Of a DNA stretch of 36,839 nt, positions 3,373 through 36,302 are shown piece by piece. The position numbers and the translations under genes are program-made. The notes under the pieces are model-generated. The model searched no databases. It was not told the DNA's origin and worked only from the letters and a program-made list of their open reading frames with translations. Location of the stretch: positions 1 to 36,839 of the forward strand of contig JADLEH010000364.1 of NCBI GenBank assembly GCA_020846255.1, read 5' to 3'. This DNA comes from Propionibacteriaceae bacterium. Lineage in GTDB: Bacteria; Actinomycetota; Actinomycetes; Propionibacteriales; Propionibacteriaceae. Every line of letters begins with the position of its first letter. The first letter of the stretch is position 1.

Positions 3373-5339
3373 CCGAGCCCAAGTACCTACCCCTCAACCT
3401 GCCCAGCGGATCCCCGCGTGGTGAGCGACACGGCTACCTCCGGCTCTGCAAGCTCTTGGCCGCACAGACTCCAGGCCCGCTGGCCGGTCTCAACCACGAC
3501 CAGTGGGTGGCTGCCGCCAAGCTTGGTGATCTCTACACCCAACCAACCCTGGCAGCTGCGGCGCACACCGCCATTGATCTGGTAGCCCAAGGCTGGACAG
3601 TCAAGGTCGATCGTCTCGGTCCGCTGTTCTCGCTGCCAGCGATTCAGGTTGACCGCGATGCCGAGAAGGAACGGATCCGCACCCAGGAGCACCTGCGTCG
3701 CGATGAGCAGTTGCGTAAGCCCAGCGTCCGCCGGTTCGTCAAGGGAATGGAGCGGCCCCGCCCGCACCAGGGTCAGCTAGTGTCGATCTTCGACCTGATG
3801 CGGGACGGGCGTGAACTCGCAGAGGCCCTCAAGGGGGATCAGAGCGAACGAACTGCCATCCAGCCGTACGTGCAGATCGTGGATGACTCGACTTGTGATT
3901 TGACCGGCTTCAAGCTCCAAGACATCTGGCGCTACTTCCGTCACACCTGGTCGAACGCCTACGCCACTGTGCCGGGGCGGTCAATGCCGATCCTGGTGCG
4001 GGACCGAGCCACTCCACATCACGTGGTGATCGGGCTCGCGGCCATCTCCAGTCCGGTGGTGCAGATCGCCGAACGCGACACCTGGATGGGTTGGGAGACG
4101 GATCAGTTTCTGCGCGATCTACGGGAGGACCCGAGCGACGAGCTGGCCCGCTGGATCGCGCACCGCATCCAGGTCCAGCAGGCCGAGGTTTACGTGGACG
4201 ACCTGCTCAAAGACAGCTTGCTGCAACCATCGGATCTAGCGAAGCCGACCGACGACGTGATCGCTCGTCTCAAGGCCGACGCCGAACGCCACCGGCAGCG
4301 ACACCATCGGTCCGCGACTATCCGTGAGGTCCGCAACATCGAGCACGATGCCTGGATCGTGCGAGCCGAGACAGACCTGTTCCGCAGCAAGCGGTCGGCC
4401 GCACTGGCCGAAGCACTGGATATCCGCATGACGCTCGGGCCTTACCTGCTACCCGAACCAACCGCCGACGGCCTTCGACGGGCGCTTGGTGACCACCGCG
4501 CTATCGCTCGGCTCCGTCGGCTGATTCGGCGCGCACGTGGCGAGCGTGTCGGCACCGTGATCGCCGACCTGACGGTCTGCGGTGCGGTCGCCCCGTACAA
4601 CGCACTCACGGCAGGCAAGCTCGTCGGCGCCCTGGCCGTTTCCCCGACGGTGCTGGCTGCCTACAGCCAGAAGTACGCCCGACCGAGCGAGATCGCCTCA
4701 GCCATGGCGGGCCGGGCAATCGTCCGCGAAGCACGACTTTCAATGATCGCCACCACCTCGCTCTACGGCACTGGGTCGAGTCAGTACAACCGGTTGGTCT
4801 GGCCGGCCGAGGTGGTTGGTGGCGAACCGGGACAGCGTATGGGCTTCTACGAGCTTGGTCGATCGCGGTCTTTCGGAACATCGCAATTCACCGACATATC
4901 TGTGGAAGCCCTCGTCAGGCTCTCCACGCTTAAGGATGCCTCCGTCCGAGTGAACAGTTTGTTCGGCGAGGGCGTCAGCCCGCGGCTGCGTAAAGTGCGC
5001 CTCGGTCTGGCTGCGCTCGGCTGGCCAACCAATGAACTGCTTAAGCACGGCCGCGAACGCATCCTTTACGGCGTCCCGCTAGTGAGCAACCTGCGCGACT
5101 ACTCCCTCGGCATCGACCGCACACCCGACTACCTGATGGACGTCTCACTGCCGGACGGTGACGCTCGTGTCTCAGCTTGGTGGCTGGACCGTTGGGCGCT
5201 GCGCCGAGCAGTGCAGCCACACGTCCAGGAAGCGATGCAGAGCCACCGGCTAATCCGTCCTGTCACCCACGGGGCACGCGTTCCGCTTCCACCAGACGAG
5301 GATGAGGGATTGCTGTCGATGGCCGCGCAGGCCCGTTAG
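3369..5339 (+). CDS. DUF4338/DruA-like Druantia-type anti-phage protein
   Basis: 'IWRYFRHTWSNAYATVPGRSMPILVRDRATPHHVVIGLAAISSPVVQIAERDTWMGW' and 'CGAVAPYNALTAGKLVGALAVSP...SLYGTGSSQYNRLVWP' match remembered DUF4338/DruA motifs; ATGA overlap with the GHKL gene. Confidence 0.65.
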   Translation: MTEPKYLPLNLPSGSPRGERHGYLRLCKLLAAQTPGPLAGLNHDQWVAAAKLGDLYTQPTLAAAAHTAIDLVAQGWTVKVDRLGPLFSLPAIQVDRDAEKERIRTQEHLRRDEQLRKPSVRRFVKGMERPRPHQGQLVSIFDLMRDGRELAEALKGDQSERTAIQPYVQIVDDSTCDLTGFKLQDIWRYFRHTWSNAYATVPGRSMPILVRDRATPHHVVIGLAAISSPVVQIAERDTWMGWETDQFLRDLREDPSDELARWIAHRIQVQQAEVYVDDLLKDSLLQPSDLAKPTDDVIARLKADAERHRQRHHRSATIREVRNIEHDAWIVRAETDLFRSKRSAALAEALDIRMTLGPYLLPEPTADGLRRALGDHRAIARLRRLIRRARGERVGTVIADLTVCGAVAPYNALTAGKLVGALAVSPTVLAAYSQKYARPSEIASAMAGRAIVREARLSMIATTSLYGTGSSQYNRLVWPAEVVGGEPGQRMGFYELGRSRSFGTSQFTDISVEALVRLSTLKDASVRVNSLFGEGVSPRLRKVRLGLAALGWPTNELLKHGRERILYGVPLVSNLRDYSLGIDRTPDYLMDVSLPDGDARVSAWWLDRWALRRAVQPHVQEAMQSHRLIRPVTHGARVPLPPDEDEGLLSMAAQAR

Positions 5340-6578
5340 CTACGACCCCAGCGGGTACCACTCCGACGTCCCGACCATTGAGATCACAAGACGGTCCGGG
5401 TCGTCGGGATCCTGACTGCGCCGGACTCCGAGCAGGCGCACACGCCGTCCGGCCTGGAACGCCACGTCGGTCTCCACGGTGCGGACGAGCACCTGGGCGG
5501 GCGGTTGTGCGAGAGTCTCGGCGAACCAGCTCTTGGAGCCGTTCTGCCGCAGTATTCGGCCTTCGAAGTCGAACCACTGCCCGGTAGACACAGCTGTGAC
5601 CGCCGGTGGCAACGCTGACCAATAGGCATCGCAAAGGTGCCTAACGCTGCAGTACCTGCAGTTCTCCTCGATCGGGTTCGCTGTTGGCGGAGGCTGCTGA
5701 GTGACCGTGTCGGCCGCCTGGACGCGGGCAGACGTCGCGTCCTCGAGAGACTGCAACTCCGCTCGATCCGGTGTCTCTATGGCCTGCTCGCCGGCTGGAT
5801 AGACGACATGGAGCTCGGTCGCCAACTTGCGGTCGGGGTTCACCTGCGCATCCAAGTACCACAGGAGCGCGTATAGGCGGACCTGGTCGCCGCGATCTTG
5901 ACTCTCGGCACCAGTCTTGAAGTCGACAATGCTGACCTGGGCGTCATCGACGACCAACAGATCGATCCGTCCCGTGAGCCGCATTGCTTCGGCGACCACC
6001 TCGAGTTCGGCGTGCGCCCCCGATCCAACTGGCCTGCGCGGCACCGGCCCGCCCAAAGCCGAGGTGCCTCCGACTGCACTGATGCCGATCTCCGAGACCG
6101 ATGGGAAGGTGCCGCGCCCCAGAAAGACCTTTGCCTGGTCAGCGGCTTCGGGCGCCCGCCGAATGAGTTCTTCACGTAGTCGGTCGACCTGCTCGGCGCT
6201 AACGCGCGGGTTGTCACGGAATCGCGCGAGTTGACGTTCGATCCCGTCAAGCACGATGGTCCGCCAGCCCCCAAGTGACCTCAGGATGCCGACAGCATCT
6301 CCGGTGTCGGGCGACTCAACGCCGGCGGCACCAAGCTCTCTTGCCAGGCGCTCGACCACGCCATGGACGACGTTGCCGAAGATCGCCGGGACTACCGGAA
6401 GGGCCGGATAGCCGTGCCGATCCCACAAGTCAGGAAAGTCGGCCCGCGACAACATCCACTGACTCGGGCAGGCTTCGATGGCCTTGAGGGATGAGTAACT
6501 CCAGTGCGGTGGCGTCAGCGGCCACAGCCCCCAGATACCGGGAACCTCGGTCTCAAAGCGAGTGCGCTCCTCGGTCAC
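5340..6578 (-). CDS. PD-(D/E)XK nuclease, RecB/AddB/Cas4-like, with putative 4Fe-4S cysteines
   Basis: 'SYSSLKAIEACPSQWMLSR' N-terminus, 'IDLLVVDDAQVSIVDFKTG...DQVRLYALLWYL' catalytic core, 'CRYCSVRHLCDAYW' cysteine cluster; start overlaps the helicase stop (6575-6578). Confidence 0.8.
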   Translation of the reverse strand: MTEERTRFETEVPGIWGLWPLTPPHWSYSSLKAIEACPSQWMLSRADFPDLWDRHGYPALPVVPAIFGNVVHGVVERLARELGAAGVESPDTGDAVGILRSLGGWRTIVLDGIERQLARFRDNPRVSAEQVDRLREELIRRAPEAADQAKVFLGRGTFPSVSEIGISAVGGTSALGGPVPRRPVGSGAHAELEVVAEAMRLTGRIDLLVVDDAQVSIVDFKTGAESQDRGDQVRLYALLWYLDAQVNPDRKLATELHVVYPAGEQAIETPDRAELQSLEDATSARVQAADTVTQQPPPTANPIEENCRYCSVRHLCDAYWSALPPAVTAVSTGQWFDFEGRILRQNGSKSWFAETLAQPPAQVLVRTVETDVAFQAGRRVRLLGVRRSQDPDDPDRLVISMVGTSEWYPLGS

Positions 6579-9500
6579 TTGACGAACTCCAGCACCTCAC
6601 GCGCAGCATTGGGCAGGCTTCGCGCAATGATCAGGTCATCGACGAGCATCACGCGCTCGAAGGTCTCCTGCGCGGCGCGGCGCAGTTCGGGGGTTGGTGC
6701 CACATCTGGTGTCAACGGCCCGTGGACTCCAATCAGCGCACGGGCACCGCTGTCCCCAGTGGCCAGGATGGGGACGAGCACCGGTCCGATACCGGCGACA
6801 TCAACCGTGACGTTTCGCTCGAAATGAACGCCCTCCAGGCCCGACCGATCCAGGTCCTCGTAGAGCTTCTTGGCCGATCTTTCGAGGCGTCCCGGCGCCA
6901 GGGTCGGCAGCGTTCCGTACAGGAGGTAGCGCAACAGACTGGCTCCAACGTGGCGGTCGAGATGGGTGTGCTCGAACCGGTTACGGAAGCTCCGTAGGCA
7001 CCGATAACAGGACTCGTCGCAATCGGCTGGGCAGCGCTCAAGCCGTTCCAAAGCCAGCTCGAAGATCTCGCGTCCGAGTTCGCTCACCTGTTGCGTGAAG
7101 CCAGCGCCACCCGACAGCGTGTCGTAGAGGTAGATCTCCGCCTCCCGACCGTGACCACCCCACTGTGTCAGCGCCGGACGAAACTCGGCCTGCAGTTCGT
7201 TGGATTCGATCTCCAGACGTGCCGTCGCTGCGATCGTCAGGGCTTCGGCGACGGTACGGAGCGCCACCTGCGAGGACAGGTAGGACGGCCGCAGTGTCAC
7301 CGGATCCGACACAGTCATCCGTATGAGCAGAACATCCGAGATGAAGTCGGTTCCGAGGACCAGCCCGCGGGATGCACGGCCACCTGGGCACATTGCATCC
7401 TTGGGATCGGTTGGGAAGGGCTTGCGGTGCGTACCGGCGAGCAGTGGCGTCGGCATAGCCGTCGGCTCGATCAGGCCACACCAGGTGCAGAATGTATAGC
7501 CCTCGTTGCGCGGACCTGTGTTCGACACAAGCAGTGTCTGTCGATCGAAGTTCTGCTGGATCCGATCGGTTACGTGCTGCCACAGGTTTTCGTTACCCGG
7601 ACCGTCCGCGATCAGCTTCGCCCTGGTCGCGTAGGACACCGCCGGTTGGTCATCTGGGCTGGTTCCGGGCGGCTCGCTGGTCGGATGGGCGAAGCCTGGC
7701 GGCCGCAGCCAGTTCATGCCGGGTCCGAAGCGTTCGCCCTTGCAGGCCGGGCAGAAGTCCGTTCGTCCACGGTCCGCCTGCTCCCACGGAATGTGTGTCG
7801 CGTAGTGGCAGTCCTGGCACTCGAAGTACATCAGCCGCTCACGCCACGCGTCGGTCAACTCCTTGCGCATTGGGGAATAGAGGGCGCCCGACGTCCATTC
7901 CCGCTTGTCGACCCACACCACCTTGCCGGGGGCGTACTGGCTGAGTGCAACGGTCAGGCCTTGGCTGGGCGCGTACTGGAACACCGGCCGGTACGACGTC
8001 GAACGGTCTTCGTCGAAGATGTGGAAGCTGACGACGTCGGTTGGGAACGCGTAGCGCGGCAGCACACCCTTGTAGAGCAGTCGGTCTAGCAGCTTGGTGC
8101 GGGCACGCTGCGAGTTGAGTTCCTCACCAGTGTCCTCACTTGGGTCGGCGTCACCGGGCGCGTCGTCGGCCGCAGAGCCGTCATAGCTCGCCCCCGTGTC
8201 CTCGGTGGCTGCCTCAGTGGCGTCCGAATCCGTCTCCGCGTCTGCATCGCTGGCCGACTGGGGGCCCAGGGCGTAGTCGATGCTTCCAAGCGTCGTCTTG
8301 ACGAGGCCGTCAAGAACCTCATCGCGGGCGTCGCCCTTGATCTCGCTCGGCAGCCAGTCGTCGACGTCGGCCCGAAGTGCGGGCTCGTTCGACGCCAGCC
8401 ACTTCTCAAAGTCCGTCCGGTTGAGAGCGGCGCTCTTCGACAAGAAGTCGGTGACAGCCCCCAGCACTTCGAACAGGTTGGCCGGCATGGTGTTGGGGTC
8501 AAAGACCTGGACCCGATCCTGGTGGTATCGCTGAAGCAGGAACGCGGTGACGTGCCGCTTGGCGATCTCGATGTTGCTCATTGTGAGGATCGGATCGGCG
8601 ACCTCCCCACTGATCATGTCCTTGGGCTCACGGAAGTAGTGGTCGTCGTGGGTGTCGGCGCTCCCGAAGGCCACGACTGTCGCTACGGTATTGCCGCGAC
8701 GCCCTGCCCGGCCGGCACGCTGCTGGTAGTTGGCCCGCGACGGCGGCATGTTGCGTAGGGCCACACCGCTCAGCGACCCGATGTCGATACCAACTTCCAT
8801 CGTCGTCGTGCACGACAGCAGGTCGATAGCGACTTCAGGCTGTTCACCCGGCGCTGGTACGGCGATATTGACGTCCTGGAAGAGCAGTTCGTACATCTCC
8901 GCCTTAGAGAAGACGTCGTCGGCCTGGGAAGAGTTCAACTGCGCGGTGTGCTCGGCCGCGACGATGCTCATGACCTCGCCCGGCGGCGTGGCGAGTGCTC
9001 GCTTGGAACTCGACCGGTAGTAGCCCTTGCGCGCCTTGAACACCTCGTCGGTATCCGGGTCGAGTGCACGAACCTTGTTGGCACCACACGAGATGCAGAT
9101 GGTTCGTCCTGGGAACGGACGCTGGGTGAAGCGGCACTTGTCGCAGTAGCCCCAGGCATCGTCGAGTTCGAGCGCGACCGTCCTGGCCATGAGCTGGTAT
9201 TTGTCGCCCACCTTCTGGCAGAACTTGGCCTGCAGAACCGGCAGCCACTCGGCCTCAAACACTCGGCGGGCTTCGCGCGTAGCCAACCACTTCGTGAGCT
9301 TGGTGAACTTGCCGCTGGCACCCTGGACTTTGTTCCCCTTCCAGTCGGCGCTCATAGCCGAGAACCAGATGCCGGGGCGCATCCAGAGCGATAGCCACAG
9401 GCGAACCAGTGCCAGCTTCTCGTCAGCCGATACCGCAACGCCAGGGATGTCGACAAGTCCAGCCAGTACTGAGTCCTTGAGATTGGCGCGCTCGCGCAGT

Positions 9501-12181
9501 GACGCCAGACCAAGCGCCTGGAAGCTGTAGTACTGGCTGGTCAGTGTCGGAACCAGACTGCGCAGCAGTGATTGTGGTGGCGGGTCCTGAATCGAGCGAA
9601 GCTGCTCGAACTCGTTAGGGTCGTTCAGGGCTCCGCGGTCGATCGACTCAGCGACCTCCGTGAAGGCCTGGAAGTTCTCCGTGCCGGTCAGCTCCGGGCG
9701 GAGACGGACGCCGAGCAGCTTCGCCCCCACCATGGCGGCGAGGTACAGATTTTCCAGGCTCAGGCTCGGGCCGATCACCTGCCGTGACAGCTCACGCCAG
9801 CCCTTCAGGACGATGGGGCGGACCGCGTCGCGCAGGGAGTAGTCCTGGACGTTCGGGGCCAGCCGTGCCGCTACCTGACGCGAGTCGGAGAAGGCGAGCA
9901 CCTTGCGACCACGCAGGGGAGCGAAGTCGTCAGCGGGCTGAGGTCCCGGCGACTGAACTTCGAGTTGCCGACTGACCAGGGCCTGGAATGGCTGGTCGCC
10001 CTTCGTCTGGTGATCCTGAACGCTGGTTCGACCGAAGTTGGCGCGCTCGCCACAGACACCGCACGGCACGAACTCTCCGGTGATCCCGGTCTTGGGCGAG
10101 TCTCCGTCGTCGTCGTCGCCGTCCTGCTGCTGCTCGCCGTGGCGGGGGTAGCGCAGCCAGACTGGACGCCACCGTTCGCCCAGGTCGTGAGGGTTCAAGC
10201 GACCGGTAACGAGGTCGAGTTCCTTGAGCTCAGCATTTCCGACATCCTCGGAAGGATCCTCGAGTAGCAGGTCGATGGGCTGCAACTCCGTCAGCGGCCC
10301 GGAGGCTGTGTTGAACGCCTTGCCGGGCTCCTGCCACAAGAACGACGGGTTCTCGATGTCGTCGGTGTAGGCGCGGGCATACGCCGTGCCGCATTGTCGA
10401 CAGGTGAACAGTTCGAAGACTCGCGCCCCACAGTCACAGGTGTTGCGTGGTTGGCCGTACATGGCGCCGATTGGTCCCGGCGGGATGCCGTCGCGGTCGG
10501 CAGTGCAGTTGGGGTCAAGGCAGGCCCAGAGCCCGGGCAGCCCTCGGAAGAAGGCATGGACACGGCACGGCAGCAGGCCGGCCTCGTTGGGCTTCAGCCG
10601 AGCGGCACTTCCCAGTGAGATGAGCGTCGAAACTGCCCGATCAGCGATTTCGGCGGCAGCGGCGGGAAACACCAGCGCACCGAGTTCGCTGACCGGCAGC
10701 GCCTTGCTCATCGTCTCGTTGACCAACTTGGCCAGCGGCGGAAAGTCGCAAAGCGCCCGGTAGAGCACCGAACTTGATGCCTCACCCGCTTCTGGCACAA
10801 CGCCCCGGTGGTTCAAGAGCGTCGTGGTAGCGACGACGCGTGCATTGTCGTTCTCGGCCTTGCTGTACTGCTCCATCGGAATGCTGGCCAGGATCGCGGC
10901 GTCCGTCGGCGAGCCAACTCCTTCTGGCTTCCGCATGTCGAGCGTGCCTACCACCGCATCAAAGTCGTCGACTTTCTTGCCGCTCAGCTGGGCCGCGAAG
11001 GCTCGGGCGTACTCGGTGTCGGAGAAGCTGGCGCTGGTGGCGATCACCTGGAGGCGGTCGGCGGGGATGCCGAGCCGTGCCCGCAGGCGGCGCAGCAGGA
11101 GTGCCACCTCCGCACCGGCCGCGCCTCGGTACAGGTGGGCCTCATCAATGATTAGGAAGAAATTCTCGTTCGGGTTGTCGTGTAGCCACTGCTTGGTCGC
11201 ATCGAAGATCGGCCGCTCCAGCGGCCGCATCAGCATGTATTCCAACATCGAGTAGTTGGTGATCAGGATGTCCGGCGGCCAATTCAGCACCTCATGACGG
11301 GTCAGCAGTTCTGGGTCGTCGGGCAACATGGTGGCGCGCTGGAATTCGCCAGTGCGCGGATTCTGCCATCGCTGGTTACTGGCGCCGTACCAGGCCTTGA
11401 GGTCGGGCTTGGCCGGCCACTTCCCGCGGGCCTTGAGCTCTTTGATGAGTTGCTCGGCTCGCTTCTGGCGAGGCGAACCAGCCTTGGCAGCTTCGTCGAT
11501 GAGGGCGATGTAGTACTTCTCAAGCGCCTTGAGCTTGACCTGGTCCTTCTTGGCGGTGCGCACACCTGGGTAGAGAGTGCGGCTGGTGTAGCGGGCAAAT
11601 CGAGCCGGACGACCGGCCCAGTTGGCAAACTGCTTCGTCACCCGCTCATCCCCGAGCAGCAGCCGCAGGCGTCCCAGCTGGTCATTGACTAGGGCGTTCA
11701 TCGGGTAGAGCACCAGCGCCCGGATGGCCGGCGTCCCAAACGACTTCGGTCGGTTGGCGGCCTCCTCGGCCAGCTTCGCTAGCGTCGGCAGAAGGAAGGT
11801 CTCTGTCTTGCCCGACCCGGTACCGGTCGTGACGACCAGGCTCCGGCCGTCCCGGGCTGTGGCTTCGAGTGCCGTCGCTTGGTGGGTGTAGGGCGGGTCG
11901 AAGAGCAGCGGCTTGACGCCGCCAGTCGTGGAGGTCAAAGCGGCGAACAGCTCACGGGCGGCGGGGTCGAGGTCCAGATCGGCGAAGTGCCCGCCCGGCG
12001 TGTAGCGCGGCGTGCTCTCCAAGAACGGCGCCCGATAGGTGTTGCCCTCCTTGTCGAGGAGCAACTGTCTCTGCCGGATCAGGGATGGGTGCCCAATGTG
12101 GTAGGTCGCCTCGATGTACTCGCGCAGGGCGGTTCGGATCTCGCTGATCGTCTCCGCAATGGTGAGAGCACGCGTTGTCAT
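6575..12181 (-). CDS. large DEAD/DEAH-box helicase with DUF1998-type C-terminal region (DruE-like)
   Basis: Walker A 'TGTGSGKTE', '[11 protein letters not shown]', '[39 protein letters not shown]', Zn-binding Cys pairs (CDKC...CISC, CRQC), '[30 protein letters not shown]'; ATG at 12181 overlaps the upstream stop. Confidence 0.88.
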   Translation of the reverse strand: [1868 protein letters not shown]

Positions 12182-13260
12182 TTCCCTACACTTTCGACGA
12201 CTTGCATCCACAGCGACTTGGACAGGAATAGCGTGATGTCGCACTGGGCGGCATCACGTACACGGTAGGAGAACAACGCCCCCTGTGACCTTGAGACCGG
12301 CAGACCGGTTAGGTCGAGATATCGCTCGGCCCACGACGGGAGCGGCCCGAAGAAGTCGAAGATGAAGTCGCCGTCGGGCTGCCCAGTTGGACGGACGCGC
12401 AAGATCTGGGGGCTGCCGCGCTGAGCGTCGAGCGCGGCCTGCACCCTCCGAGCATCGTCCCAGCCGGGCGCGACCGCGGAATCAACGGGCAGGTCCAGCA
12501 CCGCCTGCGGTATCCCATCGGTGAGTTCAACCACGCACCAGAGCGGCGCGCCATATGCCTGCGGACGTCGACCTACGAAGATCCCTTGATCGGAAGCCAG
12601 CGGCTCGCGCCACCGCCCCCGGTAGTAGCGCACTGGCGTCGCCGGGTCGATAAGCGTCAGGCCGCTGACCTGTCCAGGTATCCTGTGTGCCGGCAACTGG
12701 CTACGCACTCGCTCGATCACTGCGGTGGTTGCCTCTACCCTGGGCGTCCTCGTCCACTGCTCGCGAGTCAGCGGGTGCAGACCCGCAGCGGCGAGCATCT
12801 CGGCCGCGGTATCTGGGTCCAGTTCGACCGACCTGGTGTGGGCCTCGTACGAGACTGCGGTGTCAACCGACTGCTCATCGAGGATAGGGCCGGCGTTAGG
12901 CCGAATGCCCAACAGCAAGAAGCTGCCAGGTTGCTTCTCGACATAGGAGGGTGGGCCGAGAAAGAGCAAGCGGGTCCTGAGGTTGGTCGGTCGCAGTTCC
13001 AGCAGGTCGCCGGTGCTGATCAGGGTGTCGAGCGCGTCGTTGACCTCCTCCCGCTCCAGGTCGGTGCCCAGCGGTGCCAGAGCGTCGAGAACCGCATCGA
13101 CGATCTGACGTGGTGAGGCCGGACACAAGAAGGACGCCGCCCGTCGCAGTGATGCACACAAGCCCTCGACCGAGAAGAGGTCGATTACCTTGTCGTCAAG
13201 GCCGAGGATGCTGGCGGCGCGCGCGGCCACCTCTTCGCGTCCGATCCGCTGAATGCTCAC
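12178..13260 (-). CDS. hypothetical defence-operon protein (~360 aa)
   Basis: GTG start at 13260 in a GTGA overlap with the upstream gene; overlaps the helicase start downstream. Confidence 0.75.
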   Translation of the reverse strand: MSIQRIGREEVAARAASILGLDDKVIDLFSVEGLCASLRRAASFLCPASPRQIVDAVLDALAPLGTDLEREEVNDALDTLISTGDLLELRPTNLRTRLLFLGPPSYVEKQPGSFLLLGIRPNAGPILDEQSVDTAVSYEAHTRSVELDPDTAAEMLAAAGLHPLTREQWTRTPRVEATTAVIERVRSQLPAHRIPGQVSGLTLIDPATPVRYYRGRWREPLASDQGIFVGRRPQAYGAPLWCVVELTDGIPQAVLDLPVDSAVAPGWDDARRVQAALDAQRGSPQILRVRPTGQPDGDFIFDFFGPLPSWAERYLDLTGLPVSRSQGALFSYRVRDAAQCDITLFLSKSLWMQVVESVGK

Positions 13261-16103
13261 CCAACACCACCTGCCACTTCCTCGACGGAGCCGAGCACCG
13301 CGAACCGGGCGACTCGGATCAGTACTGGATCGGTAAGGACGCAGCGCAGATACCGATTGCGTTCGGCCTCGTCCCAATCCAGCAGTTCGCCTGGGGAACT
13401 GGCCAACTGCAGGAGCAGCCGAGCGCCCTTGAGCGTGTTGGACATTCCGGCGGAGGTGATCAGACTGGCCGCTGCCTGACTGAAGCCCTCGATGAAGGTC
13501 TCAGCACTGTTCCACTGCCAAAGATTGGTCGCGATCGCCTTGGCCGCGCCGCGCTGGGCCGGCGATTCGCCCACGAGCGCCTGCGCTTGGTCGAGGTCCA
13601 CGTCCGTTGCCGCAACGCCGACAATCCGATGCTCGAACCGAGCCCAATGTCCCGGAGCCAGCATCACGGCCATAGCCGTCGTGATCGCGTCGAGTACCCG
13701 CTTCCGTTCATGCACCCCGAAGGGATGGGCGGGCAGTTCCGCATCCCGCCAATGACGGTGGTGGCGGATCAGCTTGTCTACCTCCAGGAGTGACTTCTGG
13801 GCGGTCGGCACCGAAGGCTGGAAGACCCCCAGCTGGAGCAGTTGGTTTGGATCTGGCGGAACGATCTGGCCGGCCACTTCCCTGCCATTGGTTGCCCACA
13901 GCAGGCCGCCGCGAGCCTGGCTGACGAAGACCTGATCCATGGAGCACGTCTGTGCGACCAGCGGTCGCTCGACCGGGAAGAACTCGACCGTGACGGGATC
14001 GCCGTCGGTTCGGTCAATGAGGCGTGCGGTGTAGCCACCCTCGCGATGGCGAGCCGAGAGCACCCAACGAAGTCCCTGGAAGCCACGCTCGCACGTCAGC
14101 GTGGCGAACCCAACTCCGGCCCGGCTGACTGCCAGATGGGCGACGTCGGCCTCGTCGTAGCGCTTAGCAAGCTCGTCGCGAAGCTTGTGGAAAAAGCGCT
14201 GCCACTCGTCGCCGGTGACCGGCAGCCTCAGGGTGCGCCGATGAAAGTCGAGTTCGACTCCTTCCCCGTCACAAAGGGTGACCTTGAGATCCGCGGTTGT
14301 GCCATCCGGACCATCCAGTTCGACCACAGCACGGCCGTCCCACAACTCGGGCAGGCTGGGCTGGGCAGGCACGGTCCGCAGCCGGATGCCCTCACCGGCG
14401 GTCGCGCCCTCGTCCTGCACCTGGGGGTCGCGGATGGTCGCAAGTAACGTTCCGCCGGTCTTGTGCCCGTCCCCGTCGGGGTCGCCGAGGGAAACGACGA
14501 TCTCGTGCGCCCCCACGTCGAGGCCGTCGAGTGACAAGAACAGATCGGTCTCGCCGGTAGGCCACTCGACGTAGTAGGGCTCATTGTTGATTGTTAGCCG
14601 CGCCTTCTGCGGGGCGTACTGGGCGTGGATCGCGATAAGCGCGGGCTCACCTGCCAGCCATTCGACCGAACCCTCACCATCCCAACTGCTCGCCACTACG
14701 CCGACCGGGCGAATGTTCACGTCGGAGATGACCGATAGGCGGGAGTTCAGCAGCGCCCGGACGTCAGGGTCACTCAGAACGGGGGGTACCTGGAGGTCGT
14801 ATGCACGAACACCATCGACCGCAATCTCCGCCCGTTGGCACCAGGCGACATCTGGCGGAGCTAGCTCCGGTACGCCCACGATGCAGTAGAGACGGCCCGG
14901 CCGAACAACCTTGCCCTTGACCTCGGTAGCCGGCCCACCCGGCTCGCGCCGAAACACCCACCAGGGACCGCTGGTGGTGCGGCATTGGTCAGCGATCAGA
15001 AGGTTGACTTCCCGCGACGCCCCCTGGAGTTGGAGGAACGGATCGGTTGGCGCTGGCCAAGTGGCTAACTCGACTGGAGCGGTCGCGAACAACAACCCAC
15101 CGGTGGGAATGACCTGTCGGGCACCTGCGACGACAGTGCGGTGCTTGCGTAGTTCGTCGTAGACGCTCGGCAGGGTGTGCTGCAGGGGCTTCAGATCAGG
15201 CAGAACGGCGTACGCCTTCCACGCCCCGCCATCCCGCCGCAGTTGCAACTTCGGGTCGGTCGCGGCCGGCAGGCGCTTCTCCTGGCTCCCCTGGTTGTCG
15301 GTGCCCGTCGTCGGTCGGAAGTTTCGCGTCCGCACCTTGCTGGCCGAGTGGCGAGCATCCTGCAACCAACGACGCGACTGGCGTTCGCTGTTGAGGCTCT
15401 CAACGATGCGCGCCAGGGCGGCCGACTCAATGTACGGCGACTCCTCGTCATCCCCAGAAAGCAGCAGCGCCACGGCGACATGCCCGACCAGCGCGGTGTT
15501 CTGACAGAACTTCTCAAGACGATCACTGTAGTGCCGCGACCAAGAGTGGAGCCGTATGCCAAGAGCGAGCGGATCATCGAGCAGTCCGGGCCACCCGGAT
15601 CGGTAGTCCGACAACATCTTGGCGAGTTGCACCTGGAGGTAGCGGGGTAGCACGGCGTGCGTGATGGGCCACGCGATCTTCCGAAATGTGTTTGCCCATG
15701 CTCCCTGTGGGATCGCCCCGCCGTACTGCTCAGCGAACTTCGTGAACCAGTCACGCACGCGACCACGCTCATACTCGCTGTCCACCCAGCCCGGGGTCGC
15801 CTCGGCGTAGATCGGCCAGTATTCGGCGCCGTCGTAGTTGTAGCCGACTTCGGCGGCATGAACCACGAAGGGCAGGAACCAGCGTCCGCTCGTCCGGGCC
15901 GTAAGGTGCTCCCGATGAGCCGAACGAACGGCTTCTTGAAGCGCTCCGAGATCTCCACCCAGGAGGCCGTGCTCTAGCGCAAAGACGTGTATGGAACCGC
16001 CGATCTGCTGACGACGCTCGTGCAGTGCGCGGAAATGGGCGTCCAGTTCACCGTGGAGGAACTCCACAGTCTCCGAGGTGCTCGCGCGAGCGAGTTCCAC
16101 CAT
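13257..16103 (-). CDS. large hypothetical defence-operon protein (~948 aa)
   Basis: Long ORF; ATG at 16103 with GAGG-type RBS upstream; coupled to the next gene. No family confidently recognised. Confidence 0.75.
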   Translation of the reverse strand: MVELARASTSETVEFLHGELDAHFRALHERRQQIGGSIHVFALEHGLLGGDLGALQEAVRSAHREHLTARTSGRWFLPFVVHAAEVGYNYDGAEYWPIYAEATPGWVDSEYERGRVRDWFTKFAEQYGGAIPQGAWANTFRKIAWPITHAVLPRYLQVQLAKMLSDYRSGWPGLLDDPLALGIRLHSWSRHYSDRLEKFCQNTALVGHVAVALLLSGDDEESPYIESAALARIVESLNSERQSRRWLQDARHSASKVRTRNFRPTTGTDNQGSQEKRLPAATDPKLQLRRDGGAWKAYAVLPDLKPLQHTLPSVYDELRKHRTVVAGARQVIPTGGLLFATAPVELATWPAPTDPFLQLQGASREVNLLIADQCRTTSGPWWVFRREPGGPATEVKGKVVRPGRLYCIVGVPELAPPDVAWCQRAEIAVDGVRAYDLQVPPVLSDPDVRALLNSRLSVISDVNIRPVGVVASSWDGEGSVEWLAGEPALIAIHAQYAPQKARLTINNEPYYVEWPTGETDLFLSLDGLDVGAHEIVVSLGDPDGDGHKTGGTLLATIRDPQVQDEGATAGEGIRLRTVPAQPSLPELWDGRAVVELDGPDGTTADLKVTLCDGEGVELDFHRRTLRLPVTGDEWQRFFHKLRDELAKRYDEADVAHLAVSRAGVGFATLTCERGFQGLRWVLSARHREGGYTARLIDRTDGDPVTVEFFPVERPLVAQTCSMDQVFVSQARGGLLWATNGREVAGQIVPPDPNQLLQLGVFQPSVPTAQKSLLEVDKLIRHHRHWRDAELPAHPFGVHERKRVLDAITTAMAVMLAPGHWARFEHRIVGVAATDVDLDQAQALVGESPAQRGAAKAIATNLWQWNSAETFIEGFSQAAASLITSAGMSNTLKGARLLLQLASSPGELLDWDEAERNRYLRCVLTDPVLIRVARFAVLGSVEEVAGGVG

Positions 16104-16497
16104 CGGATGCCCCCTCAACCTCGGTCTGGCAGTGTGTTCCTGCCTCGGTGACAGTCTGGCGGAAAACGTCTGACAGTTCATGCGCGAATAGACGGGAACA
16201 TCCTGATTCAGCGCAGCATTGATCCGTCCTGTGATCGGCTTGCCGAGCAGCACGCGTACATGCAGAGGCCGAATCGCCAGCACGCCGAATCCCGGAGGCG
16301 GTCATTGCGCCGTCGAGGATGACGCATTGGCCCGGGTTCGCTTTCTACGGCCTAGTGGCCCGGTCCCGCACCGCGTCGGAAGCCTATTGCGCGTCTGGCT
16401 GGTGCCACGCGCGAACGGACTCGGAAGAAGCGGTGTGGGGCTCGGGTAGGATGCGCCGCCGACTGCTGCACTTGAGCAGGTGAGTACCAAGCCCAAC

Positions 16498-29057: not shown

Positions 29058-29810
29058 TCACTCGAACCGCGCATCTCCGAAGATAATCCCAAATACTGGA
29101 TGATCCTCGGCAAGGAGTGCGATGGTGACGGTCTTCAGTCCACGTACATCCCAAGCGACGTCCTGATCGCCCCCGTAGATCACCTCATGCTTCTGGCAAG
29201 CGCTGTATTCCTCGTCGTCGCCGACTGGTATGCGCTCTCGCAGGATCCCGTCGAGTCTGACGAGAACGACGTATTGATGGCATGGTACCTCGGTGGCGCC
29301 GACCGAGGCCTTGAAGGTCGTTGCTCCGGGCGGCACGGCAAATGTGACGTGTCCTGACTGGTTATCCGCGTTAAGTGTGAATCCGCTTCTGTAGCTATTG
29401 TCAACGGTCTTTACGCGCCCGTACGTTGGCGTCCCTTTTCCCACCTGCTCTGTTCGGCTGATGTACCGAACTGGAAAGCCTGGATTGGGCGGCACATAGC
29501 TCGGCCATTGCCAGATCGGCCGACCGCTCGTGGTCTCGCTGTACTTGTCGACCGATGTAATCACGATGGCGCCCGCAATGAGCACAGCTGCGATCGTCCA
29601 AGCCGCCACCCGCGTACGGTTTCGCTTGATGATGGCCACGGCGCCCGAGATCGTGGCTAGGACGGCAAGGGTCAATACCACGGCCTGCGGCAAGCCCCGA
29701 GAGGGAAGTGTGTCCAACGCTGCACCTGCGCTAAGGGCGCCCACCACAAATAGGACCACGGCTGGCGTCTCGGATCTAGACGTCGGCTGGTCATCGGTCA
29801 CGCCTCGCAT
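29058..29810 (-). CDS. membrane protein with three N-terminal TM helices and a C-terminal extracytoplasmic (NPCBM-like) domain
   Basis: Hydrophobic segments 'AVVLFVVGALSAGAA', 'AVVLTLAVLATISGAVAII', 'AAWTIAAVLIAGAIVI'; C-terminal 'NADNQSGHVTFAVPPGATTFKASVGA...LVRLDG...VAWDVRGLKTVTIAL'. Confidence 0.7.
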   Translation of the reverse strand: MRGVTDDQPTSRSETPAVVLFVVGALSAGAALDTLPSRGLPQAVVLTLAVLATISGAVAIIKRNRTRVAAWTIAAVLIAGAIVITSVDKYSETTSGRPIWQWPSYVPPNPGFPVRYISRTEQVGKGTPTYGRVKTVDNSYRSGFTLNADNQSGHVTFAVPPGATTFKASVGATEVPCHQYVVLVRLDGILRERIPVGDDEEYSACQKHEVIYGGDQDVAWDVRGLKTVTIALLAEDHPVFGIIFGDARFE

Positions 29811-30111
29811 GTTAGCGGCGTCCACTCGACGGGCGTGGGGTGGTCTTGATTCCTGCCGTCCGGCACGCGCCCGTCAGCTGAGACATTGAGGATTCTGATC
29901 CCTCTTGGTAGCGGTGTCCGCAGGGGGCACGAGGGTTCGGTCCCCTCAAACCCACGCTGGACTGTTGATGTGCACCCCCAGAATCTAGGCGCTACTTGGC
30001 GCCGCCCGGCACTACGCCAAGGTGGGCAAGTCCGCACATGAGGATCCCCCTGTCGTTGGCCTTCCATACACCCAGCACTTCGCCGCACGACTCGTAGGGA
30101 AGATTATGCGA

Positions 30112-31050
30112 TCAATAGAGGTCATCCGGTCCGCGTTTCCTACGCACCGACTTAAGCATCACGGCGACGAGCCACACGACAACTGCCGGTGCCAACGCCG
30201 TGATAACGAATCTTGCTGCCGGCGAGATACCTTCCCCATTGAGTGCGAGCCAGAACTGGTCCGGGAGGATCAGGAAAGCGAGGGATCCAGCAAGCACCAC
30301 GACCGCCAGCCATAGGAGGCTCAGTTGACGCTGCAACCGGTTCGTGTCGCTGGTGTCGATGCCTAACGGGGGCGGTTGCCCCTGCGATCGTCTGGCGGGA
30401 AGATGCGCGGCCGCTACGTCGTTCCGAAGCGCCTGGAGCTCGGACCGCACGATGTCAACGTCCTTGGCCAACGCTCGAGGCGAAGACTCTCCGCGCTCGT
30501 AAGGGATGTCGCGCCAACTACCTCGCTTGAGGCGCTCGGCTCGATCCCCGAGAACGTAGAACTGCGCGCGTCCAATAGGGAACCCGACCGGAATGATGAC
30601 GTCTGCATCCGACACGTTGCTAACCGAAAGGTAGATGCGATTGCGAGTGCCCGGGTCGACATAGGTACTACCTACAGACAGGCCGGCGGCATATAACTGG
30701 CCCAGGCCAATGACGCTGGCGTACACGTCGGGCGGCAACTCGAACGCCTCCTTCGTAAAAAGCCGCACCGTTGCTCCAGGGGCGATTCGTATACGACCGT
30801 CTGCCCCGGCGGGAGTCCGGTGCTCCCTCAGTCCCTCGCCTGCAGTGAGGTAGTCGATCGTGCCTACGTCCCCGGAGGCATGCACTTCGTACGAGGCGTA
30901 GGCAGCGTGGGCCGGGTCGTACGCCGTTTCGCGATCAAGGAGAATTCCCAATTCCTCGATCGCGACACGGATCTGCCTATCGGTCAGTTGCGCGGTTGGC
31001 TTGAGGGGTCGGTCGCCCCACAACTGCCGGAACGACGGCTCCGTCGCCAC
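30112..31050 (-). CDS. dCTP deaminase/dUTPase-fold-like protein with C-terminal TM helices
   Basis: 'ELPPDVYASVIGLGQLYAAGLSVGSTYVDPGTRNRIYLSVSNVSDADVIIPVGFPIGRAQFYVLG' resembles the Dcd/Dut core; two C-terminal hydrophobic segments. Confidence 0.7.
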   Translation of the reverse strand: MATEPSFRQLWGDRPLKPTAQLTDRQIRVAIEELGILLDRETAYDPAHAAYASYEVHASGDVGTIDYLTAGEGLREHRTPAGADGRIRIAPGATVRLFTKEAFELPPDVYASVIGLGQLYAAGLSVGSTYVDPGTRNRIYLSVSNVSDADVIIPVGFPIGRAQFYVLGDRAERLKRGSWRDIPYERGESSPRALAKDVDIVRSELQALRNDVAAAHLPARRSQGQPPPLGIDTSDTNRLQRQLSLLWLAVVVLAGSLAFLILPDQFWLALNGEGISPAARFVITALAPAVVVWLVAVMLKSVRRKRGPDDLY

Positions 31051-31811: not shown

Positions 31812-32525
31812 CTAGCGCGGCAGCATCGGGTAACGGTCGTACGTGGAAGATCCTGGTTGCCAAATGTCGGCCACCGCCGAGCCTGGCACGTCCGCGAAGT
31901 AGTGCACGTCGCCCCACGCCATCGCCAAACCAGCCAGGTGCCCGGCGAAAACCGGGCCCAGACCGGGGAACGCGTGGAAGCTAACACCGAGCAGGGGCAG
32001 GTCAACGACGACGATGGACGGGCGGCCGAGTTCAGCGAGGCGGACGCGGGCCTCTGGCGCGGCACGCCAGTAGATCGCCTCGCCGCCCCAGGTTGACAGC
32101 AGCGGGCGAACCCCTGACGGAAAGTCTGCGAATGTCGAGCGGCTCACAACCGCACACACACGTCCGTCGCGCTCACCGGGCCCAGGGATGGCGTAGACCG
32201 TCCCGGCTCGGAACATGGCTGCGTCGTGCTTAGTGATCGAGCCTGCCGCGACCGCGGCCGAGATGCGTCGCTCTACATGTTCGGGAGTAAGCATGCGGAG
32301 GCCGTCCCGACGGATGCCGATCACCTCGTGCTCAAGCAGCCGTGTAGCGTGGTATGCCCGCAATGGGCGTCCTTCAAGGAGCATGACGAGCCGCTCATTG
32401 CTAAGGGGGATGGCGAGGTCGGATGCATACTCGGTGGTTGGGAACTTGGTGAGCGCATCACTCAATTCCGCCAGCAGTGCAGTGGGCCAAGTGCTCAGGT
32501 CGTCAGGATCAACAGCGGTGGTCAT
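31812..32525 (-). CDS. hypothetical protein, possibly ADP-ribosyltransferase-like
   Basis: ORF with ATG start; 'LRAYHATRLLEHEVIGIRRDGLRMLT' and 'STWGGEAIYW' are suggestive only. Confidence 0.55.
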   Translation of the reverse strand: MTTAVDPDDLSTWPTALLAELSDALTKFPTTEYASDLAIPLSNERLVMLLEGRPLRAYHATRLLEHEVIGIRRDGLRMLTPEHVERRISAAVAAGSITKHDAAMFRAGTVYAIPGPGERDGRVCAVVSRSTFADFPSGVRPLLSTWGGEAIYWRAAPEARVRLAELGRPSIVVVDLPLLGVSFHAFPGLGPVFAGHLAGLAMAWGDVHYFADVPGSAVADIWQPGSSTYDRYPMLPR

Positions 32526-32540
32526 GCGTGCGGACTCGCG

Positions 32541-33218
32541 CTAACTCGACTGGGAGTGGGTTCGGGCGAACTTGCGGAGGCCGGCCACCTTGGGCACATC
32601 CACCCACAGCACGACGCTATTCGGGGTGGTCCCGGTACCGGTCACCCGGTAGCCGTCAGCGCCGAGCCGAGTGAGGATCGGCGCGATTGTGCCTGCCCGG
32701 GCGGTGGACAGGTAGCCCACCCTGCGGCCCTTTCCGTACACCGCCACTGCACTTGGGTCGATCGGGTTGTCAGGCTCCGGGATCAGGAGATACTCGGTGC
32801 CCCCGTACAGCTTCCGTCCTGCGTCCGTCACGCAGTATCCCGAGCCCTTGATCCGTGTCCGCACGGAGTCCAAGCCGGAGAGGTCCACCACCCGCAGCGC
32901 CGCGACGTTGACTGTGCGGACGCGGAGCGGCTCGGGGGCGGGCAGCGGCTCGCTGAACCTGGCCACGAGCCGCGCGATCGTCTCGGGCTTGAACCCTGCG
33001 GTCTCCGCCCGCTCCCGGATCACTTCGGGCGGTATCTCGTCCGGGTACTCCCGCAGCAAGTCATTGGCGAGCGTCGCGGGGGTGAGTTCTCGCGGCGGCA
33101 TGGTGCGGTGAACCTCAATCAGGGGCCCTGTGGGGTGGACCGAGAGCGCGGGTGCGTCGGCCGAGCGCGCCCGAGGTTCGCCCCAGAGAGCGCGCTTGAT
33201 TCGATCGAACAATCCCAC
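32541..33218 (-). CDS. HIRAN-like domain protein
   Basis: 'EYLLIPEPDNPIDPSAVAVYGKGRRVGYLSTARAGTIAPIL' matches the HIRAN pattern (xEPxNpxDpxAVaV...GYL); likely GTG start at 33218 (VGLFDRIKRALWG). Confidence 0.7.
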   Translation of the reverse strand: MGLFDRIKRALWGEPRARSADAPALSVHPTGPLIEVHRTMPPRELTPATLANDLLREYPDEIPPEVIRERAETAGFKPETIARLVARFSEPLPAPEPLRVRTVNVAALRVVDLSGLDSVRTRIKGSGYCVTDAGRKLYGGTEYLLIPEPDNPIDPSAVAVYGKGRRVGYLSTARAGTIAPILTRLGADGYRVTGTGTTPNSVVLWVDVPKVAGLRKFARTHSQSS

Positions 33219-33776
33219 GGCCGGAGCGTATCGACTGCGGATCGTTGCCGTACACAAAAGGCGGCGCAGGAGAGCGGACAAGAACGGACGAGAGCGGACG
33301 GTTTGGGACCTTCTGGCGGTGGGTGGCCGGAGGAGCCGTCATGGTCATGGGACAGCGGCAGCCGTACGTGCGCAACGCACGATCCGAAGCGCGGCGAGCA
33401 GTGCCCTGCTCACCAAGTCTTCCGGCTTCGCCGTTCCGGTCCCTGAGTTGGTGGTCCCGGTGGACGCAGCCGGCTTCACAGGTCGAAAGCGGCCCATCGG
33501 TGTCCATGTCGGTAACCGAGGGAGGCTCGTCGGCTTATTGAGCAACCAGCCTGCGCTCATCGACGAGCCCAGGTCGTGTTTGGGCGCTCTCTCAAGGAGG
33601 TTGAAGCGGCCGTCAGACCTGGTCGAGTCGCACCGCAGTTCGGCTGAGAGTGTCACGCCAGTCGAGCTCGCGACGGCGAACTACCCTACCGTTGCATCGG
33701 ATGCGCGCCTTGCTCGGCGCCAAGCGGAATCGGTTCGCGAATCCTCACGAGCACTAGCGACGGAGGGCTTGAAGGG

Positions 33777-36302
33777 ATGGGCAAGAAGAACCGCCAACGG
33801 CGGTATCAACGCCGGTCATTGGCACCCTCGGCTGACTCGCACGCTCAAGCAGTCCTCAAGTCGGTCGGTGCCCAACTCAGTCTGCGTGCGGAGCTGCTCT
33901 CCGCCGACGACCCATCCGCCCGCGCCGAGCAACTGCTTGCCGAAGCGATTGACGAACTGTCGACGGCGATCGCCGAGTTCGATACCGCTCGCGTCATTGA
34001 AGTTGCCCGGCTTAAGTGCCTCCCGTGGTCGTTCTTTCCTCAGGCTGGAGCCGCTGAGGGAGGTCTGACGCGTGCCGAAGTACTAGCCCTTCTAGCGGTC
34101 ACGAGTCATGCAAGCCGCGGTAGCGAAGCGGGACCTACCAAGACCGAGCTTGTTGGGGGCGAAGAGGCCGGCCGGGGACCTTCGCATGCCCAGCCCATCA
34201 CCGACGCCGTCTACGGCCGGATAGACGCCGTGGACACAATCCTGAATCTTGCACAGGTAAGGGATCTCCTAGATGCGGATCCGGAGGACGTCATCGGATT
34301 GATCACGGCGAAGATCCGTGGTGCGGAAGTCTGGATAAGGAACTCGTCCTACCCTGACCGAGTCGAGATCACCGTGCGGGAACTTTTCTCTCACGAAGGT
34401 GTTGACCAAGCCCTTAAGGCGCGCCTCGGATTCGGTGTCGATGAGGCCCTCCGCGCCCTCCAAGGGTGCCACCAGATGCAGGTGGACCGATTCAGCGCCC
34501 GCACGGAGAGATGGCGCGATGACATGACCGGTGCCATGCAAGCGCACCCAGACGGACTCAACGAACAAGAGCGCAGCCACTGGATCGGACAATGGCAGGC
34601 ATTCTGGGAGCCGGAGAGCCAGTTCGTCACGCTGAGCGCGCAAGAAATCGCCGACCACACAGGTCTCGACGGCGCCGCCGTCCAGGCAACACTCGAGTTC
34701 TTCGCACTGGACCTGTACGGATCGACGCCGCGGTCGGTGATCAACGCTTTCGCAGCGGGTGACAACCCGCTGCGCACGAACCCAGTCATCGCCGGTACGG
34801 ATGGACGTTTCATGCTCGTCCACGACGCCCATATCGTGGTCGCCGTTCGCGAAGCCTTCGAGCAATACCTCAAAGGCACCCCGGCCTGGGATCAGTATCA
34901 AGCCCACCGAGGGAAGGTCCTCGAGGAGCGAACCCAGAAGGCGCTCGCCAGCGTTCTCCCTGAGGCAACTGCCTTACACGGATTCCAGTACTACGTACCG
35001 GCCACCGAGGCCGAAGAAGCCGGTCCGGTCGAGGGCTACACGAAGCGCGTCGAGGGGGACCACCTCTTCGTCCTCGACGACGTTGCGATCATCGTGGAAG
35101 ACAAAGCAGTCGCCGTCGCTCCGGCCGCGAGAGCAGGGGACACAAGGCGCCTCCGAAACGACCTGACACGCATCATTGAGCGAGCAGTCTCTCAGGCCCG
35201 ACGCCTCCGAGACCGCATCGAAACCGACCAAGGACTCAGGCTCCACGGGGCGGAGTGGATGGACTTGAGTTCCGTCCGAGAGATCCACACAATCGCCGTG
35301 AGCCTCGAGGATCTTGCAGCGACGACGACCGGAACAGCTGAACTCATCCGCGCCGGTTTCATCGACAAAGACTGCATCGCATGGACCGTGTCCCTACACG
35401 ACTTGGACCTCGTCGCCGAACTCATTGACCACCCGGCCGAGTTTCTCCTGTACCTCCGGCGGCGAACCGACCCGCTAGCGACTGTCATCTATACGGCGTC
35501 CGACGAACTCGACCTCTTCCTTCACTTCCAGCAGAAGGGTCTCTACGTCGAACCGGATCCAGACGAGCTGCGCAATAAGCTTCCATGTCTTCCGGCGGCG
35601 ACGGCCGCAGAACGCCGTCGCTTCAAAAGACAGACACCCGTGTACATCACGAGTCTCACCGACCAGCTTGATGTATGGCACCGCCAACGTATCGCTTCGA
35701 CAGCAAATAGCACTCACGGCGCTGGCGAGGATCAGGGAGTCGACTTCGAGACGACTCCCACCGGAAGACCAGCGATGGTTCCTACCCCTCTTCGAGCACT
35801 ACTGGAGGAGCTGCGAGCCAGCCGAACGTTCGCCTGGCTGAGCATTGGCGCCACTTTGCTCTCAGGAGCAACGGACGCGCAGGAGGAGATGGCGCGCATA
35901 CCTCGCGATCTGCTGAGACACCCTTTTGGCGATGGCCGCGGACGATCCATGACGATTCCCGTCGTTGACGTCCGCGGAGACGGGTGGCTACTGGCCTGGA
36001 TAACACGGCCCCCGCCTAGGAGCTTCGACGATTTTGCCGACGAGATGAGCATCTACATCCAGGCGAAGGCTCATCAACTGGGGATGAGGCGAGCCGCTGC
36101 CTTCCTTTACGACGAAGCGACCGGCGCGCTGGAGCGCACCCTTTTCGAGTCGCACCTTGGCGAACCGATACCTGAAGTACTTGCGGCCTTGGGCAAGCTC
36201 CGGCCTGCGGACGCATGGTCTGCGAAACCCCCGCCGAAAGCAAAGGCTCGGGCTGGAGGCCGGTCGACTGCGAAGCGGAAAGCGCAACGGAGTCGCCGGT
36301 AG
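33777..36302 (+). CDS. large protein with PD-(D/E)XK-like nuclease core
   Basis: 'GYTKRVEGDHLFVLDDVAIIVEDKAVAVAPAARAGDTRRLRNDLTRIIERAVSQARRL' fits the D-(x)n-ExK pattern followed by a helix. Confidence 0.7.
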   Translation: MGKKNRQRRYQRRSLAPSADSHAQAVLKSVGAQLSLRAELLSADDPSARAEQLLAEAIDELSTAIAEFDTARVIEVARLKCLPWSFFPQAGAAEGGLTRAEVLALLAVTSHASRGSEAGPTKTELVGGEEAGRGPSHAQPITDAVYGRIDAVDTILNLAQVRDLLDADPEDVIGLITAKIRGAEVWIRNSSYPDRVEITVRELFSHEGVDQALKARLGFGVDEALRALQGCHQMQVDRFSARTERWRDDMTGAMQAHPDGLNEQERSHWIGQWQAFWEPESQFVTLSAQEIADHTGLDGAAVQATLEFFALDLYGSTPRSVINAFAAGDNPLRTNPVIAGTDGRFMLVHDAHIVVAVREAFEQYLKGTPAWDQYQAHRGKVLEERTQKALASVLPEATALHGFQYYVPATEAEEAGPVEGYTKRVEGDHLFVLDDVAIIVEDKAVAVAPAARAGDTRRLRNDLTRIIERAVSQARRLRDRIETDQGLRLHGAEWMDLSSVREIHTIAVSLEDLAATTTGTAELIRAGFIDKDCIAWTVSLHDLDLVAELIDHPAEFLLYLRRRTDPLATVIYTASDELDLFLHFQQKGLYVEPDPDELRNKLPCLPAATAAERRRFKRQTPVYITSLTDQLDVWHRQRIASTANSTHGAGEDQGVDFETTPTGRPAMVPTPLRALLEELRASRTFAWLSIGATLLSGATDAQEEMARIPRDLLRHPFGDGRGRSMTIPVVDVRGDGWLLAWITRPPPRSFDDFADEMSIYIQAKAHQLGMRRAAAFLYDEATGALERTLFESHLGEPIPEVLAALGKLRPADAWSAKPPPKAKARAGGRSTAKRKAQRSRR

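What the first reader, a model, noticed from the sequence alone, without database searches (positions are those of the whole stretch)
30112..31050. Membrane-anchored dCTP-deaminase/dUTPase-fold protein with substituted catalytic positions
The Dcd/Dut core is recognisable (LPPDVYASVIG...YVDPG...LSVSN...IIPVGFPIGRAQF), but the usual R-S-S and LE-L-N catalytic contexts read GLGQL and LSVSN. Two TM helices follow a linker. Dcd enzymes act in known anti-phage dNTP depletion; an inactive membrane-tethered version could sense nucleotides and act on the membrane.
Basis: partly seen in the sequence, partly recalled or inferred. Interest (0 to 1): 0.6.

Follow-up and report, generated by a model that had tools for sequence, protein, structure and literature searches.

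The report
Membrane-anchored, catalytically altered dCTP-deaminase-fold protein
A gene in a bacterial island that also carries an anti-virus (Druantia) system encodes a nucleotide-enzyme fold that has lost its deaminase residues and is tied to the cell membrane; it is a rare branch of a scattered, apparently undescribed family whose other members travel with nucleotide-handling enzymes, so it may be a membrane-linked nucleotide sensor.

Summary
The ORF (30112-31050, minus strand, 312 aa) is real. It has a DCD-fold domain (Pfam DCD, E 9e-10; AlphaFold core pLDDT above 90; best PDB matches are all dCTP deaminase/dUTPases) and a C-terminal hairpin of two TM helices. The deaminase Glu and the Arg-Ser-Ser triphosphate motif are gone. 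The aspartate that serves the dUTPase reaction is kept, so 'inactive' is likely but unproven.

The protein is not a one-off. I found 25 loci in many phyla, plasmids and viral contigs with the same DCD-2TM architecture (group A). Of these, 23 lie beside an old-yellow-enzyme-like FMN oxidoreductase, and most also carry a MazG, NUDIX or thymidylate-kinase gene. I found no description of this operon. The window protein forms a sister branch (group B, tree support 100/98) with one intact and one decayed Streptomyces-type copy. Group B lacks those neighbours and has also lost the phosphate lid that group A keeps.

Best reading: a membrane-tethered nucleotide sensor/effector or scaffold in a nucleotide-centred conflict system, analogous to 2TM effectors such as Cap15/OptE but not homologous. 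Fold, substitutions, TM hairpin and family are shown; sensing, trimerisation and membrane action are inferred.

The parts
30112..31050 (-). DCD-2TM protein, 312 aa, GTG start
   Evidence: Pfam DCD PF22769 E 9.2e-10
30547..30987 (-). DCD/dUTPase-fold domain, about aa 22-168
   Evidence: pLDDT above 90 over most of it, best PDB matches dCTP deaminase/dUTPases
30688..30708 (-). GLGQLYA (aa 115-121) in place of the triphosphate/catalytic motif (R/K)SSL.R
   Evidence: alignment with canonical enzymes
30649..30666 (-). TYVDPG (aa 129-134): T-Y signature of the DCD-2TM family plus the retained Asp132 of the DPG motif
   Evidence: invariant in alignments
30616..30630 (-). LSVSN (aa 141-145): deaminase Glu (E138 in E. 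coli) replaced by Ser142
30337..30546 (-). mostly low-confidence linker (aa 169-238); lacks the Y.GQHG lid kept in group A
   Evidence: (pLDDT mostly 43-70)
30268..30324 (-). TM helix 1 (aa 243-261)
   Evidence: hydropathy 2.58; helix in the model
30154..30210 (-). TM helix 2 (aa 281-299)
   Evidence: hydropathy 2.62; helix in the model
30133..30144 (-). basic tail RRKR (aa 303-306), expected cytoplasmic side; basic ends recur in the family

Best explanation
The protein is a DCD/dUTPase-fold domain facing the cytoplasm, tied to the inner membrane by a C-terminal two-helix hairpin. It can very probably no longer deaminate dCTP. It most likely works as a non-catalytic nucleotide (or partner-protein) sensor that, as the trimer typical of this fold, brings six TM helices together and changes membrane integrity or recruits partners when phage infection disturbs its ligand. 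It descends from a wider DCD-2TM family that in most lineages is coupled in an operon with an OYE-like flavoenzyme and a nucleotide-processing enzyme (MazG, NUDIX or thymidylate kinase), which would make or remove the ligand. The window branch lacks those partners next to it. Shown: fold (predicted), substitutions, TM hairpin, family, operon in the sister group, island with Druantia. Inferred: topology, trimer, ligand, membrane effect, defence role.
For: Fold: Pfam DCD, AF2 core pLDDT above 90, Foldseek best hits 4xjc/2qlp with target-normalised TM 0.79-0.80. Deaminase Glu and RSS motif are lost in window and L054 and, in other letters, in all group A members. Two C-terminal TM helices by a simple hydropathy rule in 23 of 24 full-length group A members; one predicted in L043 and in L054. 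A+B form a clade apart from canonical enzymes, support 100/98. Group A operon: OYE neighbour at 23 of 25 loci, MazG at 15, NUDIX at L046/L049, thymidylate kinase at L038/L039/L045/L047/L050; DCD and OYE/MazG distances correlate (r 0.80 and 0.92, 0 of 5000 permutations). Patchy spread over many phyla, conjugative plasmids and two viral contigs. Some group A loci lie next to defence genes, e.g. Gabija GajA/GajB in Rhizobium. The window carries Druantia I genes DruA1, DruD1, DruE1.
Against: No phage, binding or membrane data exist. Group B has no conserved partner gene and lost the lid, so its pocket may be dead. Druantia lies about 14 kb away across an arsenic-resistance cluster, so the link to defence is loose. 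The retained Asp132 leaves room for hydrolysis. Only three group B copies were found, one of them decayed.
Confidence: 0.42

Rival explanations
1. Scaffold: the dead DCD trimer is a membrane platform that recruits partner proteins. In group A it would hold MazG and the OYE-like enzyme at the membrane; in group B another partner. It neither senses nucleotides nor perforates the membrane.
For: Tight operon and co-divergence with two soluble enzymes in group A; loss of catalytic residues with the fold kept.
Against: Group A keeps a segment resembling the phosphate lid (Y.GQHG), which points to nucleotide binding; no partner gene is seen beside group B.
Confidence: 0.2
2. Membrane-tethered enzyme: still a dUTPase-type or other pyrophosphohydrolase using the retained Asp, with an altered substrate.
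For: Asp132 is invariant across the family; the nearest PDB profile matches include archaeal-type dUTPases that also lack the Glu (Met at that position).
Against: Those dUTPases keep RSSLAR, which the whole DCD-2TM family has lost; group B also lost the lid. In M. tuberculosis Dut, removing the C-terminal phosphate-positioning motif almost abolishes activity (PMC5519681).
Confidence: 0.15
3. A decaying gene: a former member of the DCD-2TM system that lost its partners after transfer and is on its way to becoming a pseudogene.
For: No operon partners in either intact group B locus; a further copy (G784) is a pseudogene with a premature stop and an internal deletion; long branches.
Against: The window and Streptomyces NBC_01669 copies are both intact at 41% identity, with GLGQLYA, TYVDPG and IPVG.PIGRAQF conserved, which suggests long purifying selection.
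Confidence: 0.15
4. Ordinary housekeeping or phage-derived dCTP deaminase with a membrane tail.
For: Domain annotation only.
Against: 30.3 bits against a dCTP_deam cut-off of 92.8; Glu and RSS absent; outside the canonical clade.
Confidence: 0.03

Closest known systems
DCD-2TM + MazG/NUDIX/TMK + OYE-like operons (group A, found here; no published description found)
   Same: DCD fold, C-terminal 2TM hairpin, T-Y-x-D-P-G signature, lost deaminase Glu and RSS motif, common clade
   Different: Window lacks the SKG motif, the Y.GQHG lid and the operon partners; about 18-30% identity
dCTP deaminase / bifunctional DCD-DUT (TIGR02274; PDB 4xjc, 2qlp, 1xs1)
   Same: Fold; Asp of the DPG motif
   Different: Glu138 and Arg-Ser-Ser-x-x-Arg lost; membrane hairpin added; far below the curated cut-off
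Archaeal-type monofunctional dUTPases of DCD fold (PDB 8y1w, 9ln0)
   Same: Best profile matches of the family in the PDB; same short hairpin length before DPG; also no Glu
   Different: They keep RSSLAR; no TM helices
2TM nucleotide-sensor effectors of CBASS/Panoptes (Cap15, OptE; PMC12657218)
   Same: Small beta-rich nucleotide-binding domain joined to two TM helices (analogy of layout)
   Different: Different fold and reversed order (TM C-terminal here); no cyclase gene recognised nearby; no structural match among the best hits
dCTP deaminase anti-phage defence (AvcD and relatives)
   Same: Reaction named after the same kind of substrate
   Different: To my knowledge a zinc-dependent cytidine-deaminase fold; no PADLOC hit for the window protein

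Membership tests
dCTP deaminase (TIGR02274) | score above the curated cut-off | tested here: not met
   30.3 bits against 92.8
dCTP deaminase (TIGR02274) | catalytic Glu (E138 in E. coli) | tested here: not met
   Ser142
dCTP deaminase (TIGR02274) | Arg/Lys-Ser-Ser-x-x-Arg motif | tested here: not met
   LGQLYA
DCD/dUTPase fold | predicted structure matches the fold | tested here: met
   E 3e-11 to 4xjc, target TM 0.79
dUTPase (catalytically active) | catalytic Asp | tested here: met
   Asp132 invariant
dUTPase (catalytically active) | motif 2 Ser for the phosphates | tested here: not met
   Gly117-Gln118
dUTPase (catalytically active) | dUTP turnover | not testable with these tools
   needs protein
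DCD-2TM group A system | DCD domain plus two C-terminal TM helices | tested here: met
DCD-2TM group A system | SKG motif and Y.GQHG lid | tested here: not met
DCD-2TM group A system | adjacent OYE-like gene and MazG/NUDIX/TMK | tested here: not met
   no ORF in window 21001-36839 matches the MazG or OYE profiles; Pfam scans of the neighbours gave none
DCD-2TM clade (A+B) | common descent apart from canonical enzymes | tested here: met
   100/98 support, with a long-branch caveat for the window row
S-2TMbeta effectors (Cap15/OptE) | 2TM joined to the beta-barrel of that family | tested here: not met
   TM helices are C-terminal; the 50 best PDB fold matches shown are DCD/dUTPase
Known anti-phage families (PADLOC-DB 2.0.0) | profile match | tested here: not met
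   no family at E up to 0.1
Anti-phage defence system | protection against phage | not testable with these tools
   needs a phage challenge

The most novel reading that the evidence does not exclude
DCD-2TM proteins are a new class of membrane effector in which a dead dUTPase/dCTP-deaminase trimer reads the pyrimidine nucleotide pool, or a modified nucleotide made by the linked flavoenzyme and MazG/NUDIX/TMK, and opens or disrupts the membrane during phage infection. The window protein would be a partner-free branch that reads a different ligand.
Probability: 0.25. Interest if true: 0.85.

Novelty: new variant of a known kind. Interest (0 to 1): 0.55.

Why it matters
If right, a housekeeping nucleotide enzyme has been turned into a membrane-bound sensor/effector, parallel to CBASS/Panoptes 2TM effectors but built on another fold. 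It also brings out a widely transferred operon (DCD-2TM, MazG/NUDIX/TMK, OYE-like flavoenzyme) for which I found no description, and which can be tested in laboratory strains.

Tried and rejected
A direct genome-contig scan with the window protein found nothing; the family profile worked. In 298 genomes of the order, the matches inspected were soluble Dcd enzymes, apart from self and G237 (L003), a distinct DCD protein with a TM segment. Group B was not found in 397 phylum genomes at a meaningful score (the matches that could be read were soluble enzymes), in 38 genomes of genus g27, or in viral contigs. One partial copy turned up in 394 genomes of genus g39. Single-sequence AlphaFold gave a poor model (pLDDT 49) and was replaced by the 22-row alignment model. 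Promoter/terminator scans around the gene found nothing. Literature searches for the operon or a TM-anchored DCD gave no description; the 2015 Burroughs paper on nucleotide-centric conflict systems, the likeliest place, is not held, so prior mention cannot be excluded. DefensePredictor lists MazG and a dUTPase only as predicted, unvalidated defence domains.

Full report
Observation. The ORF at 30112-31050 (minus strand, GTG start, 312 aa) is as described. Pfam gives only the DCD domain above its cut-off (E 9.2e-10). The dCTP-deaminase equivalog model matches weakly, far below its cut-off (30.3 against 92.8 bits). Hydropathy gives two TM segments, aa 243-261 and 281-299. An AlphaFold model made with 21 relatives has a confident DCD core and two long C-terminal helices (mean pLDDT 75; core blocks mostly above 90). 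Its best PDB matches are dCTP deaminase-dUTPases (4xjc E 3e-11, target TM 0.79; 2qlp 0.80). So the fold and the anchor stand, as predictions.

Active site. Alignment with canonical enzymes shows (R/K)SSL.R replaced by LGQLYA and the deaminase Glu replaced by Ser142; Asp132 in DPG is kept. In E. coli numbering (my knowledge, consistent with the E138 mutant structures listed) these are R110-R115, E138 and D128. Deamination is therefore very unlikely. Hydrolysis is unlikely because the phosphate-binding Ser is gone, but it is not excluded. The best profile matches in the PDB (8y1w, 9ln0) are described as dUTPases and also lack the Glu, so lack of Glu alone does not make a dead enzyme; they keep RSSLAR.

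Family. Relatives with the same layout first appeared on Rhizobium, Sinorhizobium and Priestia plasmids. A profile scan of 84,980 species genomes added loci from Pseudomonadota, Planctomycetota, Bacillota, Actinomycetota, Bacteroidota, Verrucomicrobiota, Nitrospinota and other lineages, and a viral-contig scan two more. Of 25 group A loci, 23 carry an OYE-like FMN oxidoreductase next to the DCD-2TM gene and 15 a MazG gene, usually overlapping or a few bases apart. Others carry NUDIX (L046, L049) or thymidylate kinase (L038, L039, L045, L047, L050; L045 and L050 have MazG as well). A few loci are near-duplicates (L038/L039, L055/L056), so independent counts are slightly lower. Distances of DCD-2TM and its partners correlate (r 0.80 for OYE, 0.92 for MazG; no permutation of 5000 reached it), as expected of operons inherited as a unit. 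Neighbours of some loci are defence genes (Gabija, type I methyltransferase) but many are not, and no background rate was measured.

Place of the window protein. The three form group B. The tree places A and B together (100/98) away from canonical enzymes, with B on its own long branch; the program warns that the window row is long, and the pseudogene was not in the tree. Group A keeps a Y.GQHG segment resembling the Y.GQ.G lid of canonical enzymes; group B does not. Neither intact group B locus has MazG or OYE neighbours.

Setting. The window holds Druantia type I genes (DruA1 3333-5339, DruE1 6575-12244, DruD1 12178-13377), an MzaB-like ATPase (1828-3372), arsenic-resistance genes (ArsD, ArsA, ArsR), a HIRAN protein (32541-33281) and an 841-aa protein with a sub-threshold GapS1 resemblance (33777-36302). 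This looks like an accessory island. It makes a defence or stress role reasonable without proving it.

Mechanism. The layout (nucleotide-type beta domain plus 2TM) resembles effectors such as Cap15 and OptE, where a nucleotide-binding beta-barrel fused to two TM helices controls membrane disruption (PMC12657218). This is analogy: the fold differs and the order is reversed. I favour a sensor/effector (0.42) over scaffold, altered hydrolase or decaying relic.

Noticed in passing
L031:7995-10085, L032:5827-7917, L034-L056: Mobile operon DCD-2TM + MazG (or NUDIX / thymidylate kinase) + OYE-like FMN oxidoreductase across many phyla; no published description found.
   Followed up: partly
window 1828-13377: Druantia type I genes (DruA1, DruD1, DruE1), a DruK/Cas4-like PD-(D/E)XK nuclease at 5340-6578 and an MzaB-like HATPase protein at 1828-3372. 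The 1008-aa ORF 13257-16283 has no PADLOC or Pfam hit although it sits where further Druantia genes would be expected.
   Followed up: partly
window 33777-36302: 841-aa protein with weak, sub-threshold similarity to anti-phage GapS1 (13 bits against a cut-off of 320).
   Followed up: no
window 32541-33281 and 31812-32525: HIRAN-domain protein followed after 15 bases by an uncharacterised 237-aa ORF, possibly an operon.
   Followed up: no
window 29058-29825: 255-aa protein with three N-terminal TM helices and a C-terminal domain without a family match, next downstream of the finding on the same strand.
   Followed up: no
L003:1270-2337: A different DCD protein (G237) that keeps RSSYAR, has Thr for the Glu and a C-terminal TM segment; likely an independent membrane-tethered DCD branch.
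   Followed up: partly
   Followed up: yes
G000:C83:9397-9666: Second DCD-like match in the same genome, 48.7 bits, below the dCTP_deam cut-off; no match over the cut-off in this 97.5%-complete assembly.
   Followed up: no
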